DNA of 64,000 nt from Hypoxylon rubiginosum. Lineage: Eukaryota > Ascomycota > Sordariomycetes > Xylariales > Hypoxylaceae. Position 1 is the first letter of the stretch. Each line of letters opens with the position of its first letter. Positions 2,610-32,495 of the stretch are shown here, piece by piece. Below the pieces are notes generated by a model. The model was given only the letters and a program-made list of their open reading frames with translations, was not told the DNA's origin and did not search any database. The stretch covers positions 2,170,001 to 2,234,000 of the forward strand of contig CADCXA010000027.1 of the NCBI GenBank assembly GCA_902806565.1. Direction: 5' to 3'. A program made the translations under genes and the position numbers.

Positions 2610-4988
<2,379 letters not shown>

Positions 4989-9512: not shown

Positions 9513-10188
9513 TTACAAGAAGACAACGCTGGTCAATCCCGTGGCCAGGAGAGCAGCAGCGGCAAGGAGGAAAGACTGGGGTCCCATAGCCATGCCAGCG
9601 CTGTCGGTGGGCGTAGCAGTGCTGCTCGAGTCACTAGGATAAAAACAGCGATTAGCAACCCTCTTATAGAAAAGCATGGGAACAAGACACTCACGTAGCG
9701 CTGGTAGAGGCGCCGCCAGAGGCACCGGTTGCACTGTCAGTCGGAGTGGCGGAAGCGGAAACGGAGACGACGCCGGTGCTAGTGCCAGTAGTTGAAGCGG
9801 TACCGGTGCTAGAGTGCGCGGAGGAGGTCGAGGTGGGGAGGTCGGCAACGGTCACGCCCTCCTCCAAGCACTTGGACGAGTAGACCTCGTAGGCCTTGGG
9901 AAGCATATCCGTGTGGCAAGCATCCGTAAGGTTGCCCTGGACGGCATGCTGAAGGTCGCCGCAAACTGCCTTCAAGTCGGTCGGGTTGTCCTGAACTCTG
10001 TATGCGGAATTGTCATATTAGCTCGTCATTCCTGATATGGCTCTGTTTGAATCCTCCTAACTCAACACGCCTAGATCAAGACCAAACCCAACGTACCCAA
10101 GAGCAGCCAGCAGACAGGCCGGAGGAATGGCAGCAGCGACCTGGATAAAAGCCAGAACGGCGGCGAAGATGGCGAAGAAAGAACGCAT
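9513..10188 (-). CDS. small GPI-anchored cell-surface protein, four cysteines
   Basis: Exons 10188-10097, 9997-9695 and 9633-9513, total 516 nt, 171 residues; introns 9998-10096 (GTACGT...TACAG) and 9634-9694 (GTGAGT...CCTAG). The start is MRSFFAIFAAVLAFIQVAAA, a signal peptide, with the mature chain beginning IPPACLL. The mature part has four cysteines in about 70 residues, a Ser/Thr-rich stretch (about residues 90-145) suited to O-glycosylation, and a hydrophobic C-terminus (SFLLAAAALLATGLTSVVFL) typical of a GPI signal. It is probably a cell-wall or plasma-membrane protein of unknown role. It resembles CFEM proteins in overall design but has half the cysteines. The long 5' leader (to about 10640) is open in other frames but shows no extra exon. 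Confidence 0.82.
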
Positions 10189-24321: not shown

Positions 24322-25953
24322 ATGGGGAACTCGCTTGGCATAGTAACTGGAGTGCTTTTCTTATGCTGCATAGTATGGATCATCTCTTCCAATTCGGGCC
24401 CACGTCTTCCCAAAGGTCTCCCGATCGTTGGTGCACGTAAAGGCGACTGGTTTCCGTTTTGGCAGGCGACACTGAGAAACTCGCTCGACGTAAAGAAGGC
24501 AGCACTGGATGGATACAAACAATATCCTAACCAGGCGGCAATTCTACCCGTCGCCGGCCCCGGAGGAGCCAGTTTCGTCGTCTTGCCTGCCTCCGAGACC
24601 CAGTTCATCACCGACCAACCAGACTCGGTCCTCAATCTCCGCGCCGTTATCATCAAGGGGCTTCTGTACAGATATACAGTAGCGGACCAGTTCATCATCT
24701 CTAATGCGGCACACCAACATGTTATCACAACCACGCTGACAAATCAGATTGGCAATTTGATGTCAGCGTTGAATGACGAGACGGCATTCTGCTTCGAGCA
24801 GATCTGGGGTACCGACACCAACAACTTCTGCGACGTAGGCGTATGGGACACCCTCGGCCGCGTTGTGGGTGGCGTCACGAACCGTGCATTTGTTGGGCTT
24901 CCCTATTGCCGCGATCCGACACTGCTCAGCGCTGGCCTTAACTTCGCTCGATGTCTACCCTTGAGCGCTAGATTCTTAAGCTTCGTTTGGGAGCCTTTGC
25001 GTCCGGTGGCGTCGCCGCTCTTCACCTTACCAAATCGTATCTTCGAGCGCCGCTTCATCAATATTCTGCTGCCCGAGATTCATCGTCGTCTTCGGCATCG
25101 CTTTGACCACGTGAAGAACGACGGGAAGTACGTTGCGGAGAAGAATGACTTCTTGCAGTGGAGCATTGAGCAAGCCATTGCGAGCGGCGATCCGCAAATG
25201 TGGAAGCCCAGGACACTAGCAGGTCGAGTTCTGCTGCTGAATCTAGTGTCCATCCATACATCATCCTTGACAGTTACCAATCTCGTCCTAGACCTCATCT
25301 CGTCAAAGGCTGAGATTCTCGATGAACTTCGCGATGAGATCGTTGGCATCTTAGCGGAGACGCGGGGTGTTTGGACCAAGACCGCGATGTACAAAATGGT
25401 GAAGCTCGATTCGGTGTTCCGCGAGAGCGCACGTCTCAACACTCTGACAGCCGTTGCACTGCGGCGGGTGGTGGTAGCCAAGGACGGTGTTACGACTCCT
25501 TCGGGAGTTCATATTCCATGTGGCAACTTTTGTGCCGTACCTAGCCTCGCAGTGTTGACAGACGGTAAGAAATATTCATCGCCTGAAAGCTTTGACCCTT
25601 TCCGGTTTGTCGATCTACGACAGAAGGTCAACACGGGCGAGAGGCTTCCGGATCATGTGGAGCGAGCACGCATGTCATTTCCTGCTACTAGCAATGATTA
25701 CCTAGCATTCGGCAATGGGAGGCAAGCCTGTCCCGGTCGCTTCTTCGCTGCTGCTGAGCTGAAACTTATGCTGGCTTATGTTCTATTGCATTATGACTTC
25801 GAGATGCTGCCGAAGAGGCCGTCAGATACCTGGGTGGGCATTTTACGCATTCCCTCATCCAGCGCCAAAATACGAGTAAAGCGGAGGACGCGAGCGGAAA
25901 TTCCCGTATTTCGATTCCCAGCGCACGGTGTGGATTGGATGGACTGGACATGA
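24322..25953 (+). CDS. cytochrome P450 monooxygenase, ent-kaurene-oxidase-like
   Basis: Single exon, 543 residues from ATG 24322 (context CACCATGG). An N-terminal membrane anchor (LGIVTGVLFLCCIVWII) is followed by the proline-rich hinge GPRLPKGLPIVG. The I-helix region reads LVSIHTSSLTVTN, as in fungal ent-kaurene oxidase-type P450s that lack the usual AGxxT. The K-helix ExxR is ESAR in VFRESARLNTL. The PERF-like FDPFRF is present, and the heme loop is FGNGRQACPGRFFA with the ligand Cys. The catalytic machinery looks complete. It probably hydroxylates a small hydrophobic metabolite in the ER membrane; the substrate is unknown. Confidence 0.92.
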   Translation: MGNSLGIVTGVLFLCCIVWIISSNSGPRLPKGLPIVGARKGDWFPFWQATLRNSLDVKKAALDGYKQYPNQAAILPVAGPGGASFVVLPASETQFITDQPDSVLNLRAVIIKGLLYRYTVADQFIISNAAHQHVITTTLTNQIGNLMSALNDETAFCFEQIWGTDTNNFCDVGVWDTLGRVVGGVTNRAFVGLPYCRDPTLLSAGLNFARCLPLSARFLSFVWEPLRPVASPLFTLPNRIFERRFINILLPEIHRRLRHRFDHVKNDGKYVAEKNDFLQWSIEQAIASGDPQMWKPRTLAGRVLLLNLVSIHTSSLTVTNLVLDLISSKAEILDELRDEIVGILAETRGVWTKTAMYKMVKLDSVFRESARLNTLTAVALRRVVVAKDGVTTPSGVHIPCGNFCAVPSLAVLTDGKKYSSPESFDPFRFVDLRQKVNTGERLPDHVERARMSFPATSNDYLAFGNGRQACPGRFFAAAELKLMLAYVLLHYDFEMLPKRPSDTWVGILRIPSSSAKIRVKRRTRAEIPVFRFPAHGVDWMDWT

Positions 25954-26553: not shown

Positions 26554-28000
26554 TTAGATATACTCCCTTTTGCCCGCCACTAGCAGTGCGAATTCATTGA
26601 GCGACGCAGATTGAAGAATCTCAAAGACCGATACCTTTGCTTTAACGGTACTGCTAATCCAATTGCGTAGCTCCACCCCGACAAGCGAGTCAACGCCGTA
26701 CCGCGACAATGGTAACTCGGGGTCAATGTCAGACAACGGGATGTTGAAGATGTCCGACAGCTTAGCGCCAAGGGCGTTCACAAGCAACCCCGAAGCCGCC
26801 TCGATGTCGGCCGCCGCGGCGTAAGCCTTGACAAACGCTGCCGTCGTGGACTTGCTATCAGACGCCGCGGCAGTGTTGAGGCCGAGCTGGGCCGCGATTC
26901 TCAGCGTGCCGAAGCGACGGTCGTTCGCCATGGCTGACTCGGTGGCGAAGGCGTGGAAGTTTGGCCCGACGATGACCTGGCTGTCCGCGAGGGAGCCTCG
27001 CAGCGGGTCTTTGATACCGGCTTCGATGAGTCCGAGCACGGCTTCGATGTCGACGGAGCCGAAGCCAACGTTCTCGACACGTGCACGGAGACGTTCGTCG
27101 CCGCCAGCTTCTCTTTCTGCTACGTACCCGACGGACCGCACAGCGCCCAAATCGATAGTGACGGCCGGCTTGCCATTCGCCGTGCGGTGGCGAGCGAGAG
27201 CATCCTGGAAGGTATTGCCGGCAGCGTAGTTGGCCTGCGACATGTGGCCTGCTACACCGGCGACAGAGGACAGCATGATAAAAAAGGACAGGTTGGGAAG
27301 GAATTTGTGTAGGTTAATGCTGCCGTTAATCTTGGGTCGTACACCATGGGACCATTGCTCAAATGTCATACGCTCCATGACGGTGTCGTCCAGCACCATG
27401 GAACCAGCAATTGCTCCCGTGATTGGAGGTAACCCGTCTTCAGCAAGTTGCTTCAAAAGTCGGAGGAGGCTACTCTCGTCTGAGACATCGCAGTCGCGTA
27501 TCAGAAGTCGACATCCGACAGCTTCTGCTTCCTCGATCAGCTTCGCTGCTTCGGGATGGGAGCTAGCTTTGCGGGAAACAAGCACAATGTTCTTGGCGCC
27601 TTTGCGAACCATCCATTCGGCGACCGTGCGACCAATACCGCCCAGACCGCCGGATATCAAATATGTAGCGTTCTCCTTGTCCAAGGAGACAGGCGGTGGA
27701 CGTGTGATGACCTGTAGGCGAAGCAATCTATCAGAATTGGTACTCCACAAGGAGGCAGGAAATACAAGGGATACTTACATTGACTTTGTCGCCAGGATTT
27801 GGTACCAGCACCAACTTTCCCATGTGTGCTCCCCCCTGCATTTGACGCATCGCCGTGGCCATATCGGTGATCGAGAATGTGGTGATGGGATGAACGGGAG
27901 GAGTGTGACGTTCACGAATGATACGGATACTTTCCACTAGTGCTTCATGTGTCAGGGCACCACGGTACTCTGTGACAGAGAAGGCTCCGCACCGGACCAT
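26554..28000 (-). pseudogene. C-terminal remnant of a highly reducing polyketide synthase (ER tail, KR, ACP)
   Basis: Exons 28000-27779 and 27711-26554 (intron 27712-27778, GTAAGT...CTACAG) form one uninterrupted frame. It starts inside the end of an enoylreductase (ITTFSITDMATAMRQMQGGA, HMGKLVLVP), then a complete ketoreductase (TYLISGGLGGIGRTVAEWM for NADPH, catalytic Ser and Tyr in IMLSSVAG and NYAAGN), then an acyl carrier protein with the phosphopantetheine Ser in YGVDSLVGVELRNW, and ends at 26554. The KS, AT, DH, MT and most of ER are absent: upstream of 28000 the frame stops at once and the sequence becomes part of a P450 on the other strand. The remaining domains carry no stops, so the loss looks recent or the fragment may still be expressed. 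Confidence 0.9.
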
Positions 28001-28901
28001 CTTTCAAGATATTGTCCAGAGCAACCTGCCGCCGAGCGAGAAAACTCCTGCTCGTCTCTCTGCGGAGGCAAACTTACTCCAGATTGCAGGTACAGAAACG
28101 ACCGCTAGGACACTAGCTGTGCTTATTTTCCATCTGATTGATAGCCCGACGGTCTTGGACCGTCTTCGGCTGGAGTTGGAGCCGTATACGTTGGAATCCG
28201 GTTCGACCATGCGTTTGGCTGGGCTAGAAGCTATACCGTACTTCGTAAGTCTGTGTGCCTAACAAGCCAACTTCCATCTGCCAACTCCTCCTCCCCCACC
28301 AGCAAGGGACTCCTCGCTAAAGCCAGCAACAGTCAGCCGTTATAACTGAAGGTATCCGGTTGTCGCATGTTGTGTCCAGCCGCATGCCTAGGTATGCTCC
28401 CGATGAAGAAATCAAGTACGGCAAATGGGTGATTCCCATAGGCGTAAGTTCACACAACAAGAACTGTGAGACCAGCGAGCTGATTCGTGTAAATACGTCC
28501 AGACACCCGTCATGCAATCCCACTACTTACACCACACGAATCCCAAAATTTTCCCAGATCCCTATGAATTCAATCCGCAGCGTTGGCTCGACGATCCTGA
28601 CCTGAAGTCCAAGTACTTCATGGGTTTCGGCCGAGGGACCAGAATCTGCCTGGGGATAAAGTGAGTTTATATGTTCCTAATACTTCTAGAGTCTTCCCCT
28701 GATAATGAGATCAGTCTCGTATATGCCGAGCTCTTTCTGACAGTGGCTCGCGTCATGACCCGTTTCGATATGGAATTGTTTGAGACTGTAAGGTCGAGAG
28801 ATGTAGACGTCGTTCGAGACTGTATTATCGGATTGCCGAGTCATGAAAGTCCCGGCATTCGAGTGAGAATAAAGAAAGACAAGCTGGCTGTCCCTTCATA
28901 G
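27918..28901 (+). pseudogene. 5'-truncated cytochrome P450, C-terminal half only
   Basis: Homology begins at about 27996 (TIFQDIVQSNLPPSEKTPAR) and continues through four exon pieces ending at 28244, 28333-28443, 28503-28660 and 28715-28901, with good splice sites. Present are the I-helix QIAGTETTARTLAV, K-helix EGIR, FNPQRW, and heme loop MGFGRGTRICLGIN. The membrane anchor and about the first 270 residues are missing. An ATG at 27918, inside the antisense of the PKS remnant, is in frame and would give a chimeric 260-residue ORF, but without the N-terminal half it cannot form a normal P450 fold. The family differs from the complete P450 at 24322. Confidence 0.88.
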
Positions 28902-29280: not shown

Positions 29281-30309
29281 ATGTCTAGTACATATCCCGT
29301 CAACGGCAAAGCTGCTATAGTGACAGGCGCTGGCTCAGGTATTGGCTACGCCTTGACCAAGCTCTTGCTCTCAGCTGGATGTTCAGTCGTGCTTGCGGAT
29401 CTGAAGCTCCGCCCCGAAGCCGAACAGATATTGGCAGAGTATCCCCACCCGGCCTCCGCTCCTAGCTCGCCAAGCGCCGTATTCCAACCCGTCGACGTAG
29501 TGAACTGGAAGCAACTGACGTCACTCTGGGAGACGGCCATCAAGTCGTTCGGAAGGGTCGACATCGTCATCAGCGTAGCAGGAATCTACGAGCCACCCTC
29601 GAGCAGCTTTTGGAAGCCTCCAGGAATCTCTTTGGAATCTCGTGACCCGCCTGACGCGGCCACCGGCCAATACAACACGTTCGCGGTCAACCAGATTGCG
29701 CCAATCAGACTAGCGCAGATTGCGATAAACTACTGGACGCAGCATCGAGACATCCAAGGCAATTACCTGGCCGTGGGGAGCATGGCGGGCTAACTCCACT
29801 CCGTCGAGACGCCATTCTACATGGCGAGTAAAGCAGCACTTATCAGCTTCGTGAAATCGCTGGGAGCGGTTCGCGACCTGTTCGGTATACGGATCTCGGC
29901 CGTATGCCCTGGCCCAGTTCTTGTACGTCCCTCTCCATTCGACGTAACCTAGCCGTCTTGCCTCTTGCTACTGCTCTCCGTGTGCAGACCTTTCAGCTGA
30001 TCCCAATCTCACTAGACACCCATTTTTGAGCCGGAATGGAACAAGAAGTTGACAGCAGATGATGTGTCTCTCACGCCCGAAGAATGCGCGGCTGTGATTC
30101 TTCGAGTGCTGGTCGAACCCCATTGGGGAGACGGCAGTATCGTGGAAACCCAGAAGATAGGATATAATAAAAAGGAGGCGAAAGTAGTCGTGCGTGATGT
30201 GCAGATGGAGCAACTGTATCCTACTACTTTTGTGAAGCCGAGCGAGCGTGTGATTCAGAGCAGGCAGAATCTGATAAAGCACATTCAGGAATTTGGAATG
30301 AGAGATTAG
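29281..30309 (+). pseudogene. short-chain dehydrogenase/reductase with an in-frame nonsense codon
   Basis: Exons 29281-29922 and 30016-30309 (intron 29923-30015, GTACGT...ACTAG). The translation is SDR-like throughout: GKAAIVTGAGSGIGYALTK (NAD(P) site), VVLADLK, VVISVAGIY, SMAG with the catalytic Ser, then FYMASKAALISF with YxxxK, and VCPGPV. A TAA at 29791-29793 falls between the Ser and Tyr motifs, in the middle of an otherwise unbroken frame, so translation would stop after 170 residues. The protein resembles the 15-hydroxyprostaglandin-dehydrogenase-like group. Alternatives are a sequencing error or stop readthrough. Confidence 0.85.
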
Positions 30310-30645: not shown

Positions 30646-31793
30646 CTATGACAGGAGAAACGTAGCAGCAGCTGGCAATTGATTAATTGAAATGCTCATG
30701 ACCTCCCACCCTTGATCTCCAGTGTCTTCTCCCCTCATGAGTGCGGAGGATTTCTTCACACCCCACTCCCACGCCGTGAGATTGGCGTTATCATCGTTCT
30801 GAGATTCTCCATCTTGACGAACCAAATTCTTCATGATAGCGTCGCGCTCCGGCCTTGCAAGGATTGCTATGCTATACCGGTCGAGGAAACGCTGCTGGCC
30901 GGGCGGATATCGGATACGGTGCACATTGCTCCGTAGTAGTCCGCCGGTCCACTCTACCATAGCATCGCCCAGATTCACAATCAGACACCCGGGCCGTGGA
31001 CGCACCCACAACCAGGCGTCCGACTCCTTTGGCGATTTTCCCGGTGCCAATATCTGCAGTCCACCTACCACGTTGGCGAGCAGTGTGATAGTGCCAAAGT
31101 CTGTATGGTGAATTATGCTCGTGCGTAAGTCTTCCGCCGATGGACACGCATATGCTTTAAGGAGCCGAATGACGGTTCCGGGAGGCTTGGATGGAGACTG
31201 TAAAGAGGTGAAGATATCGGATGGCAGGTTAAGCTGCGTGGCCAAGACGCGACAAATCATGTGGATTATGTCCTGGCCATGCTCGAGAAACGACTTGGGG
31301 AGTGACAGATTGGTATTCATAGGTTCTGGAAGAGGCTGAAGGGGGGCACATCCTGTCAAGCCATCCTGACCTATGTTGAACCATTCAAAGCGGTCCAGCT
31401 CCATGGTCTCCGTTTTGCTTCCACCTTGGGACTTGTAGCTTTTAAATATTAGGAAGCTGGAGGTTACAGGATGAGCTAGTAAGCAAACTGAACTTACCCG
31501 AGAAAACTGCAAGGTGGATCATGTTGATACTTCTCCTTAACGTCGCTAGGGAGGTTCATAACGACCTTAGTTAGGTCAAAGAGATTATCCATCTCTTCTA
31601 TCAGGCGGTTCCCAAGATGATCACCACGCAAGTCAAGTAAAAAGAAGCCCAGCTCTTGGGCAGAGGATAACAAATTCTCAGCGACACTTGCATCTCCCGC
31701 GCGGAGACCTGATAGCAAGATAGTAGAGATCAGCGCCGTTGGAATATCATCAGGAAAAGCCGGAATATCTTCAAAAAGCTTCGCAGACGCCAT
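30646..31793 (-). CDS. 2-oxoglutarate/Fe(II)-dependent oxygenase (isopenicillin N synthase-like)
   Basis: Exons 31793-31498 and 31438-30646 (intron 31439-31497, GTAAGT...AAAAG), total 1089 nt, 362 residues. An N-terminal DIOX_N-type region (LSSAQELGFFLLDLRG) is followed by the double-stranded beta-helix core. The iron ligands are HTD in IIHHTDFGTITLL and the distal His in SNVHRIRYPP; the 2-oxoglutarate anchor is Arg-Tyr-Ser in DRYSIAILARP. The splice restores GYKSQGGSK, the usual loop after the first domain. The active site is complete. These enzymes hydroxylate, desaturate or cyclise small molecules; a tailoring role in the neighbouring cluster is inferred from position. Confidence 0.9.
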
Positions 31794-32495
31794 ATTCTTC
31801 AGCTTGTACCGAAGGCCTGTGGCTAGGTAGCGACGAACGGTGGCAAATATAGGGTAGTGTTACGGGTAGAATGTCGTTGTTCAAACGCGACATCGGCTAA
31901 TAGAAGCAGCTTGGAGTAGTCAAGGCGGATGAAACAGCTTTGATGGTCAATCATACATTTACTTTCATATCATTCTCCTCAGAAACCAAGGGCGATCGTG
32001 GCAATGTTGGATTAGAAATACAGCTCTCCAGGATATGGAAAAGGCTCACAGAGGAACCCCGACCCCGCGTTCAGGGGCAGTCAACCAGTCCCAGGTGCAG
32101 CAGCAACTTGGCCAATAACACAACCCGATCAGAGGTGAATTTGTGATGAAATTTGCTTTTAGACATAAGGAACACCCACCATACTTGGCCGAAGAATGCT
32201 GCTATGAATACCTGGTAACTACCTCTAATGGATGCTCGTGGTTCCAAAGGCATCAGCGGCGATACTGGCCCCTATTATTCATCGACCTAACTCAGTCTTC
32301 TATGTCTATCCCAATAAGATAAATACTAGTTAACCAAATTCTATGCTTTTATGATCGATTAGAGGACTAAATATGATTTATAGAAAGTTGACGAAAACTG
32401 CGTCAACAAAGCATTCGAGAGATTAACGTAACCTCTGCTGCACTACGGAGGTGTTTAGTTACCTACCTAGGACTTGACAGGCTGCTCCTGTGCAA
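31794..32495. other. intergenic
   Basis: Promoter side of the 2OG oxygenase and 3' flank of the SDR gene. No coding sequence recognised. Confidence 0.5.

What the first reader, a model, noticed from the sequence alone, without database searches (positions are those of the whole stretch)
27970..28010. Head-to-head breakpoint joining a beheaded PKS and a beheaded P450
On the minus strand a highly reducing PKS reads normally from its ER tail to its ACP; going upstream its homology ends at about 27985-28000. At 27996 a P450, missing its N-terminal half, starts on the plus strand and reads cleanly to its stop with intact splice sites. There is essentially no spacer. Two biosynthetic genes have lost their 5' halves at one point, which points to a single deletion, inversion or translocation in a divergent PKS-P450 pair. 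Neither remnant has further stops, so the event looks recent, or the assembly is chimeric here. An ATG at 27918, antisense to the PKS, is in frame with the P450 piece and creates a fusion ORF.
Basis: partly seen in the sequence, partly recalled or inferred. Interest (0 to 1): 0.75.

Follow-up and report, generated by a model that had tools for sequence, protein, structure and literature searches.

The report
Deletion scar in a fungal gene cluster
In this wood-dwelling fungus one stretch of DNA seems to have been lost recently, removing the front halves of two neighbouring enzyme genes and so probably switching off a small-molecule pathway; this kind of pathway decay is already known in these fungi.

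Summary
On the minus strand a highly reducing PKS (end of ER, KR, ACP) keeps homology up to 27973; on the plus strand a P450 keeps homology from 27975. The breakpoint is thus about 27974, not 27985-28000. Full-length relatives exist in other fungi (P450 up to 86%, PKS 84% identical). Counted on them, about 2127 residues of PKS and 284-289 of P450 are missing; neither part was found elsewhere in the 48.3 Mb assembly. In relatives the two genes lie in one cluster with the same neighbours (FSH hydrolase, second P450, acyltransferase, SDR). Best reading: one deletion of at least about 7 kb in a divergent pair, taking both 5' ends and the promoter region between them. The remnants show no excess change at conserved positions (P450 0 of 133, PKS 4 of 184), so the event looks recent. 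The SDR next door has an in-frame stop, so the cluster is decaying. Truncated, presumably dead PKS clusters are in print for this family. Ordinary and well resolved; an assembly error is unlikely but not excluded without reads.

The parts
27973..27975 (.). Breakpoint: last PKS codon base 27973, first P450 codon base 27975, base 27974 unassigned
26554..27973 (-). PKS 3' remnant: exon 27779-27973 (end of ER), intron 27712-27778, exon 26554-27711 (KR, ACP, stop)
   Evidence: Pfam KR and ACP; 450 residues without stop, up to 84% to P0101
27975..28902 (+). P450 (P450a) 3' remnant: exons 27975-28244, 28333-28443, 28503-28660, 28715 to the stop at about 28902
   Evidence: splice sites and translation; 241 residues aligned without gaps to P0002
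27968..27980 (.). 6-base inverted repeat with one central base across the breakpoint
   Evidence: 47 of 20,000 random joins reach arms of 6 or more
27918..27974 (+). New leader (19 aa) in antisense PKS sequence, in frame with the P450 remnant
   Evidence: ORF of 260 aa
27974..28000 (-). New leader (9 aa) in antisense P450 sequence, in frame with the PKS remnant
   Evidence: ORF of 459 aa
20735..22285 (-). Acyltransferase (AT), transferase family
   Evidence: Pfam PF02458, PF22664; 3 mismatches and 20 gaps against H. rubiginosum P0222
22930..23867 (-). FSH serine hydrolase (two exons)
   Evidence: Pfam PF03959; 99.6% over residues 47-292 of H. rubiginosum P0221
24322..25953 (+). Second P450 (P450b), open over its whole length
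   Evidence: Pfam PF00067; 90.4% to P0223
29281..30309 (+). SDR gene with an in-frame stop at 29791-29793 in its first exon
30646..31859 (-). 2OG-Fe(II) oxygenase; membership in this cluster not shown
   Evidence: Pfam PF03171 and a weak PF14226 match; relatives

Best explanation
A recent single deletion inside a biosynthetic gene cluster of Hypoxylon rubiginosum. Before it, a highly reducing PKS (minus strand) and a P450 (plus strand) stood head to head. The deletion ran from inside the PKS enoylreductase domain through the PKS 5' part, the shared upstream region and the P450 5' half, and joined the two 3' halves with no spacer. Shown: the exact junction; what is missing compared with full-length relatives; no copy of the missing halves found elsewhere in the assembly; no stops and no excess conserved-site changes in the remnants; cluster partnership in several relatives. 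Inferred: the head-to-head order, a length of at least about 7.2 kb of coding sequence, joining without homology, and the consequence: without KS, AT, DH and MT the synthase cannot start a chain, half a P450 is no enzyme, and the pathway is dead, with the SDR stop as a further decay step of unknown timing.
For: Homology stops on both sides within one base. Relatives are full length: P0101 (2578 aa, Thr of the junction is residue 2128), P0086 (junction Thr is residue 290). Own-assembly searches with P0086 (104 matches) and P0101 (39 matches) give no match above 70% identity except the window's own remnant. PKS and this P450 share a listed contig length in Apiospora aurea, A. phragmitis and Collariella sp.. 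Neopestalotiopsis tags run FSH, P450b, PKS in the window's order. Lecanicillium has one tag between P450a and P450b, where the window has the PKS. Remnants: 0 of 133 and 4 of 184 departures at positions invariant in the other sequences. No long repeat at the join. PacBio assembly.
Against: Strands in relatives unknown. Gene order varies (SDR and AT sit at different ends in different species), and one tag (Collariella) or three (A. phragmitis) lie between PKS and P450a. PKS was listed on the P450a contig for only 3 of 8 named full-length relatives (P0003-P0010), among 120 listed of 742 PKS hits. In one search only 18 of 214 candidates were scored. The assembly may be incomplete. No reads were examined.
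Confidence: 0.82

Rival explanations
1. Assembly artefact: the strain carries the full pair and the assembler dropped or misjoined the middle.
For: No reads were available. A second H. rubiginosum record exists (P0221, P0222) whose locus could not be read.
Against: The two genes are cluster partners in relatives, so a random chimera is unlikely. PacBio assembly. No repeat that could collapse at the join. No protein named H. rubiginosum among the 99 P450 hits or the 120 listed of 742 PKS hits, although this is weak because its P450b and 2OG oxygenase were not listed either, many names are cut or missing, and short models fell outside the length filter.
Confidence: 0.1
2. Inversion or translocation with breakpoints in the two genes, the 5' halves having moved elsewhere.
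For: It would give the same head-to-head join. Gene order varies between relatives.
Against: No copy of either 5' half above 70% identity in the assembly; best are paralogues at 25-51% (PKS, with one KS stretch at 67%) and at most 59% over short stretches (P450).
Confidence: 0.05
3. The two remnants are kept as new genes, read from start codons in each other's antisense strand.
For: Both ORFs are open, 260 and 459 aa, and conserved positions are kept.
Against: The native upstream regions are gone; half a P450 should not fold (general knowledge); recent origin alone explains the open frames. The one candidate partner synthase that I looked at (C60) has a stretch matching ACP of its own and showed no ER or KR.
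Confidence: 0.03

Closest known systems
Truncated, presumably dead PKS gene clusters of Hypoxylaceae and Xylaria hypoxylon (PMC8403587; passages, section 5, part 1 of section 12 seen)
   Same: PKS lacking several domains, sitting among other biosynthetic genes, in the same family and with a genome of matching size and contig count in the survey
   Different: Here the breakpoint is resolved and shared with a second truncated gene; whether this locus was counted there I could not see
Bikaverin cluster of Botrytis cinerea (PMC3538735; abstract and outline seen)
   Same: Cluster inactivated by loss of the PKS and harmful mutations in other genes, with intact versions in other strains
   Different: There the PKS is missing; here a shared breakpoint leaves two 3' halves. 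Intact H. rubiginosum strains are not known
Gene-content and pseudogene polymorphisms of Aspergillus fumigatus clusters (PMC5711037; passages seen)
   Same: Partial deletions, nonsense and frameshift changes that disable clusters
   Different: In the passages seen no case of two genes beheaded at one point
Split hrPKS of Xylaria hypoxylon with KR and ACP in a separate gene (PMC8403587, section 12)
   Same: A separate KR-ACP piece of an hrPKS
   Different: There the other domains are still present 8 kb away; here they were not found

Membership tests
Highly reducing type I PKS | KS-AT-DH-(MT)-ER-KR-ACP domain order | tested here: not met
   Only the end of ER, KR and ACP are left; it is a remnant, not a working member
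Highly reducing type I PKS | Sequence kinship of the remaining part | tested here: met
   84% to P0101, 81% to P0102 in the searched part
Cytochrome P450 | Full fold including the N-terminal half | tested here: not met
   Profile matched only from position 255 of 462
Cytochrome P450 | I-helix AGTETT, ExxR and FxxGxRxCxG motifs (motifs recalled) | tested here: met
   AGTETT, EGIR and FGRGTRICLG are in the spliced translation
Truncated 'dead' PKS cluster | PKS lacking several domains, clustered with other biosynthetic genes, no other core gene | tested here: met
   AT, FSH, P450b, SDR and 2OG oxygenase beside it; no other PKS among the ORFs of 90 aa or more at 18-38 kb or among the 18 further ORFs scanned
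Truncated 'dead' PKS cluster | No product formed | not testable with these tools
   No chemistry or expression data
Deletion in a divergent gene pair | Missing parts absent from the genome | tested here: met
   within the assembly
Deletion in a divergent gene pair | Intact head-to-head pair in relatives | tested here: inconclusive
   Same contig and nearby tags, strands unknown

The most novel reading that the evidence does not exclude
The deletion turned a divergent gene pair into two overlapping antisense new genes, each taking its start codon from the other's antisense strand, and the 459-aa KR-ACP product is made and works in trans with another synthase.
Probability: 0.03. Interest if true: 0.55.

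Novelty: new member of a known kind. Interest (0 to 1): 0.2.

Why it matters
It is a clean, apparently young example of how a fungal gene cluster dies: one deletion can disable two enzymes at once if they share an upstream region. It gives a base-exact marker for asking whether other strains of the species still carry the complete cluster.

Tried and rejected
Repeat-mediated deletion: the repeat search over 20-36 kb found only imperfect repeats of 20-28 bases, none at the join, and no tandem repeat lies at it. Close intact paralogue in the genome: none; the best long matches to the remnants are 41-45% for both genes, with some higher identities (up to 53%) over shorter stretches. The C64 cluster (a P450, an ORF that by eye resembles the window's acyltransferase, and a divergent PKS) is only a distant paralogue, 43-67% on the PKS. 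A trans partner for KR-ACP: C60 looked like a PKS without KR, but a stretch matching ACP follows and no ER or KR was seen; this was the only candidate that I examined in that way. Solved-structure search with the ER tail gave weak matches only (best E 0.016). Reading the 6-base inverted repeat as the mechanism: dropped, because end joining through microhomology needs direct repeats; it stays unexplained and post hoc.

Full report
Source. The window lies in contig C27 of a held genome of 48,274,338 bases in 70 contigs. Table 1 of PMC8403587 (section 5 read) lists Hypoxylon rubiginosum MUCL 52887, PacBio, 48,274,337 bp in 70 contigs. Two neighbours match proteins named H. rubiginosum: the FSH hydrolase at 99.6% over residues 47-292 and the acyltransferase with 3 mismatches and 20 gaps over 516 positions.

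The junction. The minus-strand frame reads TEYRGALTHEALVESIRII...; relatives read LLQLTEYRG... or close variants and continue upstream. The window departs immediately before Thr, codon 27971-27973. The plus-strand frame reads TEKAPHRTIFQDIVQ...; P0086 reads LVAEGSTEKAPHRTIFQ.... The window departs immediately before Thr, codon 27975-27977. Only base 27974 is assigned to neither. One or two bases of microhomology are possible but would need the DNA of relatives.

What is lost. The junction Thr is residue 2128 of the 2578-residue PKS P0101 and residue 290 of P0086; on P0085, P0087 and P0090 the same place is residue 285. About 2127 plus 284-289 residues are gone, some 7.2 kb of coding sequence, besides introns and whatever lay between.

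Where it went. The assembly was searched with P0086 (104 matches; 107 of 146 candidates scored) and P0101 (39 matches; 18 of 214 candidates scored). In both, the only match above 70% identity is the window's own remnant (90% and 83%). The missing parts meet only paralogues: P450 35-37% over long stretches, 55% over 63 residues, at most 59% over 27; PKS 25-51%, with one KS stretch of about 240 residues at 67%. A moved copy at the identity of the remnants should have ranked first. So deletion beats inversion and translocation, within the limits of the assembly.

Were the two genes partners? The protein collection gives no genomic context, but names carry locus tags and each row gives a contig length. 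P450a and PKS share a listed contig length in Apiospora aurea (3,104,223), A. phragmitis (2,680,913) and Collariella sp. (1,711,319). With the neighbour search: A. phragmitis SDR 2984, FSH 2985, PKS 2987, P450a 2991, AT 2992; Collariella PKS 4797, P450a 4799, AT 4800, P450b 4803; A. aurea P450b 4294, FSH 4295, SDR 4296; Neopestalotiopsis FSH g8245, P450b g8246, PKS g8247; Rhinocladiella SDR 9613, AT 9615, FSH 9616, P450a 9621; Lecanicillium P450a g985, P450b g987. The window runs AT, FSH, P450b, PKS, P450a, SDR. The A. phragmitis PKS model is 1876 aa and has no PF00109 in its domain list, so its front part may be one of the three tags towards P450a; that is inference.

Against a simple picture. 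Of the 8 named full-length P450a relatives at 76% or more (P0003-P0010), a PKS on the same contig was listed for 3 of 8 (120 of 742 PKS hits were listed); 6 of 8 share a contig with at least one cluster gene. Order varies between species. No P450a of Neopestalotiopsis was listed. Strands are unknown.

Age. For each protein I counted columns invariant in the other aligned sequences and asked how often that protein departs. P450a remnant 0 of 133 (nine relatives: 0-7 of 133-140). PKS remnant 4 of 184 (nine relatives: 1-17 of 181-197). Intact neighbours of the window: P450b 6 of 285, FSH exon 6 of 120, AT 7 of 228, 2OG exon 10 of 137. The remnants thus show no sign of relaxed constraint; the loss is young compared with the distance to these relatives. 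The sets of relatives differ from gene to gene and kinship was not corrected for. The SDR beside it has an in-frame stop at 29791-29793; of 8 relatives aligned, 7 carry a residue at that column and 1 has a gap there. Whether that stop came before or after the deletion is not known.

New ORFs. The ATG at 27918 opens 260 aa into the P450 (C at -3). The ATG at 28000 on the minus strand opens 459 aa into the PKS remnant (A at -3, G at +4) (the start-context rule is recalled). Nothing here shows that either is expressed.

An oddity. The six bases on each side of 27974 are complementary. Of 20,000 random joins within the two remnants, 47 (0.24%) reach arms of 6 or more. This was noticed after the fact and I give it no mechanism.

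Literature. PMC8403587 (passages, section 5, part 1 of section 12; [quoted passage not shown] The counts of its Table 3 were not in the text seen, so I cannot say whether this locus was counted. PMC3538735 (abstract and outline) and PMC5711037 (passages) describe decay of the same kind in other fungi. Paper searches; no paper on this particular junction appeared in their listings, and none of these searches asked for it by sequence or gene name.

Verdict. It is a new, well-resolved instance of a known kind.

Noticed in passing
window 29791-29793: In-frame stop in the first exon of the SDR gene beside the P450 remnant; relatives are open there.
   Followed up: partly
window 27968-27980: Six complementary bases on either side of the breakpoint; 47 of 20,000 random joins do as well or better.
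   Followed up: partly
window 24322-25938: P450b is 90.4% identical to a protein of Hyaloscypha finlandica (Leotiomycetes) but about 82% to those of Neopestalotiopsis and Apiospora (lineages of Hyaloscypha, Neopestalotiopsis and Hypoxylon looked up); possible horizontal transfer of the cluster, no tree built.
   Followed up: no
G000 C64:131750-144359 (L028, L029): Distant paralogous cluster in the same genome: P450, an acyltransferase-like ORF (by eye) and an hrPKS running the other way.
   Followed up: partly
G000 C13:11985-12443, C13:110074-110532, C68:623263-623721: Three P450 places with the same score and length, probably a recent segmental duplication.
   Followed up: no
Daldinia sp. FL1419 proteins P0241, P0247, P0258: FSH, acyltransferase and SDR of this cluster on one contig length, but no Daldinia PKS, P450a or P450b of it among the hits listed; possibly another loss.
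   Followed up: no
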